A stretch of DNA of 7,444 nucleotides, taken from positions 1-7,444 of the forward strand of contig JAUXIQ010000088.1 of assembly GCA_030620925.1 (NCBI GenBank), read 5' to 3'. Made by a program: the position numbers and the translations under genes. Below are positions 161 to 2,056 of the stretch, one piece after another. The DNA is from JAUXIQ01 sp030620925 [NCBI: Nitrospinota bacterium] (GTDB taxonomy: Bacteria; JAUXIQ01). Numbering within the stretch: the stretch's first letter is position 1; each line of letters starts with the position of its first letter. The notes under the pieces are model-generated. The model was not told the DNA's origin. It worked only from the letters and a program-made list of their open reading frames with translations, and did not search any database.

Positions 161-328
161 TTATTTCTTGAGCTTGATGCCTGCTTTGACCATGTCCCAG
201 GTGTTCTCGTTGACCCCTGTCTCGCGCAGGACCTGTTTCCTCACCTTCTCGGTGGGTGTCTTGGGCAGCTCATCCACGAACTCTATAAAGCGGGGCACCA
301 TGAAGTAGGGTAGGCGTTTCCCATCCTT
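161..328 (-). pseudogene. Orphan C-terminal remnant of an AMP-binding acyl-CoA ligase
   Basis: The minus frame ending at the stop 161-163 is open for about 55 codons back to an in-frame stop at 329-331. It reads RLPYFMVPRFIEFVDELPKT, then PTEKVRK, then a basic tail ending KLKK. This is the end of the C-terminal domain of acyl-CoA synthetases (ANL superfamily). It includes the PKT-x-x-x-K segment whose lysine (codon at about 245-247) is normally the catalytic lysine of adenylation. The large N-terminal AMP-binding domain is absent, because upstream DNA is the end of the ispH fusion gene. The only internal methionines are at 299-301 and 191-193, and no start with a ribosome site was seen. Recognisable homology begins near 316, so the break is abrupt. 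I read it as a deletion remnant. Such ligases often neighbour liv transporters in anaerobes, which would fit local rearrangement, but that is inference. Confidence 0.75.
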
Positions 329-334
329 TTACTA

Positions 335-2056
335 TTAACTTGCCACGTTATACCAGATCAGGGCGACGGTGAGATAGAGCAGCATGAAAGCATCCACCGA
401 AGCGAAAAAGTTGTTTTCGGAATACAGGGCGTTGGCCCGACGCTTTACGGTCAGGATGAAAAAGTAGAGGGGCAGGGGCGCAAAAAAGTATCCCCATGCT
501 GGAAAGATGCGGGCGACGGATGCACCCGCCGTGATGGCGGCCAGGACTATTATGAGCCTGTAAATTAAGGTCACGGTTTTCTTTTCGCCCAACCGCGCCG
601 CCAGCGTCATCCTTCCCAGCATCTTGTCCGCCTGTATATGCCTCAGGGCGAAGAAGTTTAATCTCAGAAACGAGATGAGAAATATGCAGACGCCCGCGAT
701 CAAGAAGGGCAGAAGGGTTGAGTTTGAGGCGGCTGCCGGTGTTCCGGCCAGGGCCAGGGCCCAGGCGAGAGACGTAGTTATCCCCCCTTCTCTCGACCAT
801 CTGCCCGGCCGCATTTTCCCCGCTTCGCCGCCGAAACCGCCCAGGTGGGAGGTTATCCCCAGGGCGAAGGCCGAAGACATGGTAATCAGTGAGACTATTC
901 CCAGCCGGAGCGAGAGCAGCAGCGCTGCAAGACAGGCCGCCCCCGCCAGCGCCGCGAGCAACGTGCGGTTACTGGCGATGAATTTTCCCTTTACGGGGCT
1001 GGAGAAGTATATGCGTTCCGCGTCGGACAGGTTATGAACGGTCTGTTGGGAGAAAACGAAAAGGGCGCAGGCGGCGATCAGGAAAGGGGAGGCTCTCCCT
1101 TCGGTGAGGACGACTGTGGCCATCAGCAGCCCCAATGCAGATAACGCGGTAAGCAGCCCTGAGCTGCACGCAAGATGAAGCAGTTTCGCCAAGACGCCGG
1201 GGAAATAGTGATTTTTCCTTCCCCGGATATGGTGCAGCTTTTCCACCACCCGCCGAATGGTCCAATCGGGTGTGGAGGCGCCTGCGGTTACCCCCACCAC
1301 TTCCGCGCCGGTGAAAAACTCGGGCGAAAGCTCTTCTTCAGATTCGACGTGATGGGTAGGGACTCCATACTCCTTTGAAATTTCCGCCAGCCGGCGGGTG
1401 TTGCCGCTGTTTTTGCCACCCACCACTATCACCGCGTCGACCTTACCGGCCATTCTGCGCACCTCTTCCTGCCGGAGGTGAGTCGATTCGCAGATGGTGT
1501 CGAATGAAATTACATCTCGATACAGGCTTTTAATTCGGGCCACTATGCGGCTGTATTTCTCCTCGTCTTGAGTCGTCTGGGCCACGACCAGCACTTTTTC
1601 CATCGTCGGGAGGTCATCCACCTCCTCCACCGAGTTGATGACCAGTCCCCGGCCGTCGCTATAGCCCACGAGTCCCACGATTTCAGGATGGCCTGCGTCT
1701 CCCACGATAATGGGTGTGTAACCCTTCTTGACGTGCTTCTTGATGGTTGACTGGACGCTGCCCACCCTGGGGCATGTGGCGTCGCAGACCTTGACCCCGG
1801 ATTCTTTTATCTTTTCGCGCAGTTGGGGAGGGATGCCGTGTGCCCGGATGAGCAGGGTGCCGGAGTGGAGGTCTTTAATATCCTCCACCACAGTTACTTC
1901 TTTCTGTTTCAGAAGCTCTACCGTCTGCGGGTTATGTATGAGAGGCCCGTAGGTGTAGACGGCATCCTGCCCCCGGTTGGCGGCATCCAGCACCTTGTTC
2001 ATGGCCCGCTGCACACCCATGCAGAAGCCGGAGGTCTTCGCGACTTTTACCTTCAA
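335..2056 (-). CDS. ispH: IspH (4-hydroxy-3-methylbut-2-enyl diphosphate reductase) fused to a UbiA-like membrane domain
   Basis: Residues 1 to about 275 are IspH/LytB, the [4Fe-4S] enzyme that reduces HMBPP to IPP and DMAPP in the last step of the MEP pathway. The three cluster cysteines are visible: Cys12 (SGFCMGV), Cys95 (DATCP) and Cys189. So are substrate-site residues His41, His73 (RAHG), His123-x-Glu125 (GHPE), the QTT motif near 160-162, N216-S-G-N and Ser261 (GASTPDW). Classical IspH is about 280-320 residues; this protein has 573. Residues about 287-573 form roughly eight or nine hydrophobic segments. They contain a UbiA-type second motif, HIQADKMLGRMTLAARLG (473-490), and a weak first motif, HNLSDAE (341-347). 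UbiA proteins transfer prenyl groups to aromatic or lipid acceptors in the membrane. Some of the usual Mg-diphosphate aspartates are replaced (Leu343, His473), so catalysis by this half is uncertain. The frame is continuous. The start is TTG at 2056 with AGGGAG six bases upstream; the nearby ATG at 2061 is out of frame. The gene appears to be transcribed alone from its own promoter. Confidence 0.93.
   Translation of the reverse strand: MKVKVAKTSGFCMGVQRAMNKVLDAANRGQDAVYTYGPLIHNPQTVELLKQKEVTVVEDIKDLHSGTLLIRAHGIPPQLREKIKESGVKVCDATCPRVGSVQSTIKKHVKKGYTPIIVGDAGHPEIVGLVGYSDGRGLVINSVEEVDDLPTMEKVLVVAQTTQDEEKYSRIVARIKSLYRDVISFDTICESTHLRQEEVRRMAGKVDAVIVVGGKNSGNTRRLAEISKEYGVPTHHVESEEELSPEFFTGAEVVGVTAGASTPDWTIRRVVEKLHHIRGRKNHYFPGVLAKLLHLACSSGLLTALSALGLLMATVVLTEGRASPFLIAACALFVFSQQTVHNLSDAERIYFSSPVKGKFIASNRTLLAALAGAACLAALLLSLRLGIVSLITMSSAFALGITSHLGGFGGEAGKMRPGRWSREGGITTSLAWALALAGTPAAASNSTLLPFLIAGVCIFLISFLRLNFFALRHIQADKMLGRMTLAARLGEKKTVTLIYRLIIVLAAITAGASVARIFPAWGYFFAPLPLYFFILTVKRRANALYSENNFFASVDAFMLLYLTVALIWYNVAS

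What the first reader, a model, noticed from the sequence alone, without database searches (positions are those of the whole stretch)
335..2056. IspH fused in one frame to a UbiA-like membrane protein
A complete IspH with all three cluster cysteines continues without interruption into a polytopic domain with a UbiA-type second motif. The known bacterial IspH fusion I can recall is with ribosomal protein S1 domains in clostridia; a membrane prenyltransferase partner is unusual. It suggests IPP/DMAPP production tethered to the membrane, next to an enzyme that uses or once used prenyl diphosphates.
Basis: partly seen in the sequence, partly recalled or inferred. Interest (0 to 1): 0.72.

Follow-up and report, generated by a model that had tools for sequence, protein, structure and literature searches.

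The report
Isoprenoid enzyme fused to membrane domain
One bacterial protein joins the last enzyme of isoprenoid-precursor synthesis to a membrane domain that looks like a prenyltransferase; the fusion was already described in 2015, but in this organism the membrane half has lost most of its known active-site residues, so it probably only holds the enzyme at the membrane.

Summary
Window 335-2056 (minus strand) is one 573-codon frame: a complete IspH (residues 1-275) running into a UbiA-fold membrane domain (276-573; Z about 20 to solved UbiA structures). The architecture is not new: Rao et al. 2015 (PMC4746011) described IspH-UbiA fusions. It is not an artefact: 61 of 62 named loci are fused, two of them cut by a contig end, and in 25 of 25 fusion genomes examined the fusion is the only ispH match. 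IspH trees fit one main origin with one or two reversals. The new point is the state of the membrane half. Of seven positions mapped to Mg/diphosphate or reaction-centre residues of AfUbiA the window keeps two (D345, D477), the fewest of 102 rows, and its UbiA/IspH divergence ratio is the highest of 98. Its IspH site is complete. Best reading: a working, membrane-tethered IspH whose prenyltransferase half is degenerate in this lineage. Active transferase, prenyl-diphosphate sensor and decaying passenger remain possible. Hosts go beyond sulfate reducers.

The parts
335..2056 (-). IspH-UbiA fusion gene, 573 codons plus stop, TTG start
1232..2056 (-). IspH (LytB) domain, residues 1-275; C12/C95/C189 and substrate residues intact
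338..1231 (-). UbiA-fold membrane domain, residues 276-573
1010..1036 (-). First Asp-rich motif, degenerate: H341 in place of Asn (AfUbiA N68), D345 kept (D72)
785..850 (-). Loop (residues 403-424) that in many relatives reads GxxYS...LKDIPASKD; window lacks the Tyr (Y139), the Ser (S140) and both Lys
626..640 (-). Second Asp-rich motif, H-I-Q-A-D: H473 in place of Asp (D198), D477 kept (D202)

Best explanation
The gene makes a membrane-tethered IspH. The N-terminal half most likely performs the last step of the MEP pathway (HMBPP to IPP/DMAPP) for the whole cell, since it is the only ispH found. The C-terminal half is a UbiA-fold domain inherited from an old fusion; in this lineage it has lost most of the mapped Mg2+/diphosphate and reaction-centre residues and probably no longer transfers prenyl groups, but still holds IspH on the cytoplasmic face of the membrane, near the membrane enzymes that use its products. 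Shown: frame, intact IspH site, UbiA fold, only copy found, conserved architecture, residue losses, faster divergence of this half. Inferred: IspH activity, membrane location, lack of transferase activity, anchor role.
For: IspH site complete in the window and invariant in 99 of 99 fused rows at 11 of 12 positions (98 of 99 at the twelfth). Sole LYTB match in the own genome and in 25 of 25 fusion genomes (25 of the 29 found). IspC, IspG and two polyprenyl-synthase-family genes are present, so the pathway reaches IspH. UbiA fold. Window keeps 2 of 7 mapped UbiA site positions, the fewest of 102 rows. The family's second loop lysine (ASK) is K or R in 101 of 102 rows and G in the window. Loss is not confined to the window: of the 41 rows that were not chosen by a residue pattern, only 10 keep all seven and 16 have lost three or more. 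UbiA/IspH divergence ratio 3.11, rank 1 of 98, with IspH itself among the slow ones (rank 93). In AfUbiA the mutants R22A, N68A, D72A and K146A lose GPP binding, and in EcMenA the equivalents of N68, D72, D198, D202 and Y139 are needed for function (PMC4106721, passages; that R22, N68, D72 and K146 are the four is my reading of 'four of the mutations').
Against: D345 and D477 are kept, His can bind metal, and D198A only weakened GPP binding 45-fold in AfUbiA, so residual binding or an altered activity is possible. 65 of 102 rows have lost at most one of the seven positions, so anchoring need not be the family's main role; that figure is inflated by how the 61 named rows were found. The equivalence of K146 rests on a weak profile alignment in a loop where the window model is poor (pLDDT under 50 at 407-421). 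R22 was not mapped. No expression or localisation data exist.
Confidence: 0.58

Rival explanations
1. The C-terminal half is still an active prenyltransferase that uses prenyl diphosphates made from locally supplied IspH products (the main proposal of Rao et al.).
For: UbiA fold; D345 and D477 kept; 43 of 102 rows keep all seven mapped positions; 61 of 61 members match Pfam UbiA at E <= 0.001 and 59 of 61 match NCBIfam 'prenyltransferase' PRK13591.
Against: In the window the Asn, the near-universal Tyr, the first Asp of motif 2 and the loop Lys are all changed; the window scores only E 0.047 against PRK13591 (E 0.006 in a one-genome search); IspH makes C5 units, so a polyprenyl synthase would normally stand between the two active sites.
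Confidence: 0.17
2. The UbiA domain is a prenyl-diphosphate sensor that adjusts IspH activity, comparable in idea to UBIAD1 acting on HMG-CoA reductase.
For: Fold match to UBIAD1 in the HMGCR-UBIAD1 complex (8djk); the partner is a precursor enzyme; two site residues are kept while others are lost; UBIAD1 control of HMGCR is stated in abstracts seen in the listings.
Against: No direct evidence. The residues lost here include ones needed for GPP binding in AfUbiA.
Confidence: 0.12
3. The UbiA half in this lineage is a decaying passenger with no function beyond not harming IspH.
For: Highest UbiA/IspH divergence ratio of 98 and most lost site residues of 102.
Against: 298 codons stay open, helices are predicted with high confidence and the frame matches the family profile nearly end to end.
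Confidence: 0.1
4. Assembly or sequencing artefact joining two genes.
For: Draft genome, 445 contigs, 3.55% contamination; a displaced tail that I read as acyl-CoA synthetase lies just downstream.
Against: Same architecture in other genomes; one continuous profile match in one frame.
Confidence: 0.03

Closest known systems
IspH-UbiA fusion proteins (Rao et al. 2015, PMC4746011; UbiA part called PT_UbiA_5)
   Same: IspH N-terminal, UbiA-like C-terminal in one polypeptide; function of the UbiA part unknown; localisation of IspH to the membrane, local IPP/DMAPP supply and a sensor role of IspH were all raised there.
   Different: They report two DXXXD repeats and only sulfate-reducing anaerobes; the window has HxxxD and a degenerate first motif, and members lie in records titled Nitrospinota, Nitrospirae, Zixibacteria and Planctomycetota.
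IspH / LytB (TIGR00216)
   Same: All site residues checked; IspH fold (3f7t: Z 34.9, rmsd 1.5 over 279 residues).
   Different: Carries a membrane domain; most stand-alone IspH frames seen are about 280-330 codons.
UbiA prenyltransferases with solved structures (A. fulgidus 4tq3/4tq4, A. pernix 4od4/4od5)
   Same: Fold (Z about 20).
   Different: 10-11% identity in that alignment; N68, Y139, S140, K146 and D198 equivalents changed in the window.
NCBIfam NF010117 (PRK13591 prenyltransferase)
   Same: The named model matched by most members of the fused domain: 59 of 61 at E <= 0.001.
   Different: The window itself matches only at E 0.047; the model names no specific function.
IspH-RPS1 fusions
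   Same: Another fusion on the IspH C-terminus (PMC4746011, abstract and passages).
   Different: Partner is ribosomal protein S1.
UBIAD1-HMG-CoA reductase pair (human)
   Same: A UbiA-fold protein coupled to an isoprenoid-precursor enzyme (abstracts).
   Different: Separate proteins, mevalonate pathway, control through ER degradation.

Membership tests
IspH (LytB) | Score above curated cut-off | tested here: met
   LYTB 310 vs 24.5 bits; TIGR00216 289.2 vs 187.85 bits
IspH (LytB) | Three cluster cysteines and substrate residues | tested here: met
   C12, C95, C189, H41, H73, H123, E125, T161, T162, S217, N219, S261 (roles recalled from E. coli IspH)
IspH (LytB) | HMBPP reductase activity | not testable with these tools
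   needs enzyme assay
UbiA superfamily (fold) | UbiA helical fold | tested here: met
   Z 20.1 to 4od4 and 4tq4; Foldseek prob 1.00, E 3.1e-4 to 4tq3
UbiA superfamily (fold) | Pfam PF01040 curated cut-off | tested here: inconclusive
   33.7 bits whole protein and 32.6 for residues 280-573 alone vs 34.2; 34.9 with neighbouring stretches in the genome search
UbiA prenyltransferase (enzyme) | NDXXDXXXD first motif | tested here: not met
   H341-N-L-S-D345-A-E-R-I349
UbiA prenyltransferase (enzyme) | DXXXD second motif | tested here: not met
   H473-I-Q-A-D477
UbiA prenyltransferase (enzyme) | Reaction-centre tyrosine (AfUbiA Y139, in 97% of UbiA sequences per PMC4106721) | tested here: not met
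   Ser403 in the window; Tyr in 89 of 102 rows
UbiA prenyltransferase (enzyme) | Mg2+-dependent prenyl transfer | not testable with these tools
   needs assay
IspH-UbiA fusion (Rao et al. 2015) | IspH followed by UbiA-like domain in one chain | tested here: met
IspH-UbiA fusion (Rao et al. 2015) | Two DXXXD repeats (reported as present) | tested here: not met
   window: HNLSD and HIQAD
IspH-UbiA fusion (Rao et al. 2015) | Host a sulfate-reducing anaerobe | tested here: inconclusive
   host unnamed; its genome holds a frame read by eye as heme-copper oxidase beside a UbiA start read as heme O synthase (3.55% contamination)
IspH-UbiA fusion (Rao et al. 2015) | CDD class PT_UbiA_5 | not testable with these tools
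   CDD not held

The most novel reading that the evidence does not exclude
A UbiA prenyltransferase was captured once, early, by IspH and kept as a built-in membrane and prenyl-diphosphate-binding module of the cell's only IspH; in lineages such as this one catalysis has been lost and only an anchoring or sensing role remains, making a bacterial counterpart of UBIAD1 acting on HMG-CoA reductase.
Probability: 0.12. Interest if true: 0.72.

Novelty: new variant of a known kind. Interest (0 to 1): 0.4.

Why it matters
IspH is usually treated as a soluble enzyme. In these bacteria the only copy found is joined to a membrane domain, so the exit of the MEP pathway would be fixed at the membrane. That the domain persists where its prenyltransferase residues are largely gone separates two ideas that the 2015 paper left together, substrate hand-over and anchoring, and gives natural variants with which to test them. 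The wider host range also removes sulfate reduction as the explanation for the fusion.

Tried and rejected
Frameshift or compensated indel in the odd loop: rejected, the family profile matches frame 0 only and nearly end to end. Separate halves in relatives: rejected as the rule; of 62 named loci 61 are fused (58 with both IspH motifs in frame, L130 by reading its translation, L144 and L152 cut at a contig end), the other (L156, a cyanobacterium) being a stand-alone UbiA-like frame. Fission of the fusion in family f83 (stand-alone UbiA-like frame L094 between genes that I read as sdhB and murA): the IspH of its three genomes falls outside the fused group, so a simple split is not supported; it may be a pre-fusion relative or a case of IspH replacement.

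Gene neighbourhood as a clue: 12 of 56 downstream neighbours match glycosyltransferase family 2, 5 of 56 an O-methyltransferase domain, and 11 of 30 upstream neighbours match Dus. I scanned 56 of 57 downstream neighbours (L147 left out) and 30 of 52 upstream ones (those on the + strand). Isoprenoid-related families appear among upstream neighbours once each: DXP synthase (1 of 30) and UbiD C-terminal domain (1 of 30). No recurrent prenyl-substrate gene. The window's own neighbours (threonine synthase, two branched-chain amino acid permeases, acyltransferase) give no hint.

A genome-collection scan with the window's C-terminal half alone found no relatives. Searches of the PDB by sequence with the fused-domain profiles gave only weak UbiA matches. 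The PRK13591 lead to methanogen prenyltransferases was followed into one paper (PMC6315138, passages) and gave no function for this subfamily.

Full report
What is there. The minus-strand frame 335-2056 encodes 573 residues from a TTG start. Residues 1-275 are IspH: Pfam LYTB 310 bits, TIGR00216 289 bits against a cut-off of 188, best solved relative by sequence 3dnf (E 9.4e-75). Residues 276-573 match Pfam UbiA just under its cut-off (33.7 bits in the whole protein, 32.6 for residues 280-573 alone, against 34.2). An AlphaFold2 model of the whole protein, made from the window and 58 fused relatives, is confident (mean pLDDT 90.3, pTM 0.86; the loop 407-421 is below 50). Among the PDB chains compared, the first half matches IspH (3f7t, Z 34.9, rmsd 1.5 over 279 residues) and the second half UbiA of A. 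pernix and A. fulgidus (Z 20.1, rmsd 3.1-3.6 over 254-261 residues), above the best polyprenyl-synthase rows (Z 16.3) (a second look at Foldseek's ranking; Foldseek itself).

It is already known as a kind. Rao et al. 2015 (PMC4746011; outline and passages read) found 47 IspH-UbiA fusions, called the UbiA part PT_UbiA_5 of unknown function, saw two DXXXD repeats, placed all in sulfate-reducing anaerobes, and proposed membrane localisation of IspH with local supply of IPP/DMAPP (or IspH as a sensor); they could not make full-length active protein. Searches for 'IspH + fusion + UbiA', 'IspH-UbiA', 'PT_UbiA_5', '4-hydroxy-3-methylbut-2-enyl diphosphate reductase + UbiA + fused' and 'IspH + membrane-anchored + prenyltransferase domain' listed no later study of it, judged by titles and the starts of abstracts; the only other paper with 'IspH-UbiA' cites it in its references (PMC12605070, passages). 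The library holds open-licence papers only.

How widespread it is. Among 386 genomes (the own one and 385 given by the tool as relatives, those listed being all of 'same domain' kinship only), 36 match the C-terminal profile A2 at E <= 1e-8. In 29 of these, from 24 family codes, the match lies in an open frame of at least 558 codons, and IspH in the same frame was seen for these places; in the other 7 it lies in a frame of 281-333 codons. In the phylum of one of them (G003) 15 of 17 genomes match, 13 of them without an internal stop in the best matched stretch. In the named genome collection 62 loci were found with the query A5: both IspH motifs lie in the same frame in 58, in L130 by reading its translation, and L144 and L152 are frames with the end of IspH cut at a contig end, so 61 of 62; the other, L156, is a stand-alone frame. 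Their record titles include Nitrospinota, Nitrospirae, Zixibacteria, Planctomycetota, Zymogenus, Desulfobacterota and 'Deltaproteobacteria'. Nitrospinota include aerobic nitrite oxidisers (recalled), so 'all in sulfate reducers' no longer holds. A search of 25 of the 29 fusion genomes for LYTB gave exactly one match each, always the fusion; the own genome is 89.5% complete.

One main origin. In a careful tree of 70 IspH domains (50 of the 99 fused rows, 20 single ones) the fused rows form one group, support 99/95, that also contains one single row, L030, on a long branch; two changes of state are needed, and a strict single clade was found in 0% of 200 bootstrap trees. A quick tree of 115 rows (99 fused, 16 single) needs three changes, a quick tree of 79 rows (50 fused, 29 single) two. 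Shuffled labels need 15-24. Single rows missing because my motif cut failed on them (8 of 24) were added by BLAST where still missing, and L163 was dropped there as a very long branch. This fits one old fusion with one or two later losses or misplaced long branches; it does not prove it. The window's nearest row is L134, a 'Deltaproteobacteria' record (97/85).

The UbiA site. A. fulgidus UbiA binds Mg2+ through N68, D72, D198 and D202, with R22 and K146 on the diphosphate and Y139/S140 at the reaction centre; Y139 is present in 97% of UbiA sequences (PMC4106721, passages). I mapped seven of these on an alignment of 102 fused rows; R22 was not mapped, and K146 is placed on the LKD lysine by the weak alignment. 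Rows dropped before the count: L089 (same genome as L042), L094 and L156 (no IspH). Allowing D/E, S/T and K/R as equivalents, the counts are: Asn at N68 82 of 102; D72 83; Tyr at Y139 89; S140 61; K146 87; D198 93; D202 100. All seven are kept in 43 rows, one is lost in 22, two in 20, three in 12, four in 4 and five in one row, the window: H341, D345, S403, H404, no Lys, H473, D477. A further lysine of the family (in ASK) is Lys or Arg in 101 of 102 and Gly in the window.

Bias in those counts. The 61 named rows were found with the patterns LKDIPASK or Y[VIF]F[SA]M..N, which themselves contain the K146 and N68 positions, so they overstate conservation. Among the 41 rows found by whole-protein or profile search the counts are N68 22, D72 34, Y139 29, S140 19, K146 27, D198 37, D202 41, the ASK lysine 40; all seven are kept in 10 of 41, and three or more are lost in 16 of 41. 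These 41 in turn hold 15 rows from the one phylum of G003. Five pairs of rows have identical IspH across the two collections, so they are probably the same organisms counted twice. Erosion of the site is therefore common in the family, and the window is its extreme. By contrast 11 of 12 IspH site positions are invariant in 99 fused rows and the twelfth in 98. The first Asp of NDxxD is rare in the whole family (2 of 102).

Rate. For 98 fused rows I compared median distances of the two halves on quick trees. The UbiA/IspH ratio has median 1.83 (5-95% range 1.58-2.61); the window has 3.11, rank 1 of 98, with its IspH half among the least diverged (rank 93) and its UbiA half rank 12. Lost residues and ratio correlate over the 98 rows (Spearman 0.50), though related rows are not independent. 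The profile match in one frame argues against sequencing error.

Mechanism. Upstream MEP enzymes (IspC, IspG) and two polyprenyl-synthase-family genes are in the genome, and no other ispH is found, so the IspH half most likely serves the cell's isoprenoid supply. Joined to a UbiA fold it should lie on the cytoplasmic face of the membrane. In many relatives the UbiA half may still bind prenyl diphosphates; in the window the loss of five of seven positions makes transfer unlikely, leaving an anchor, perhaps a sensor, or a decaying domain. Against this: two acidic residues remain, and in AfUbiA the D198A change only weakened GPP binding (45-fold). The genome has one other UbiA match, a fragment at a contig end that I read as heme O synthase beside a heme-copper-oxidase-like frame.

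Verdict. A real, conserved and already described fusion, here with an eroded prenyltransferase half: a new variant of a known kind, of moderate interest.

Noticed in passing
window 164-328, minus strand: A 55-codon tail (KDGKRLPYFMVPRFIEFVDELPKTPTEKVRKQVL...) that I read as the C-terminus of an AMP-binding acyl-CoA synthetase lies in the same frame, right after the three consecutive stop codons that end the fusion; it may be a remnant of a rearrangement or an assembly join.
   Followed up: partly
L032 (own genome, contig C10, 1-1700): UbiA fragment with an NHFLDRDVDGIMARTKNRPLPSG stretch (read as heme O synthase) beside a frame read as a heme-copper oxidase subunit: the host may respire oxygen, unless this contig is contamination.
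   Followed up: partly
   Followed up: no
L003 and L036-L049 (small phylum of G003): First UbiA motif replaced by a kept D/E-W-Q/R type stretch ending in DP (WQGLALVDPSK in several), with Tyr or Val in place of the Asn: perhaps a changed ligand.
   Followed up: no
L094 1507-2370 (unnamed family f83): Stand-alone relative of the fused UbiA domain between genes read as sdhB and murA; IspH is elsewhere and outside the fused group. In L003 the end of a murA-like frame also overlaps the fusion start.
   Followed up: partly
neighbours of the named fusion loci L095-L155: Recurrent neighbours of the fusion: glycosyltransferase family 2 downstream (12 of 56 scanned) and Dus upstream (11 of 30 scanned).
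   Followed up: partly
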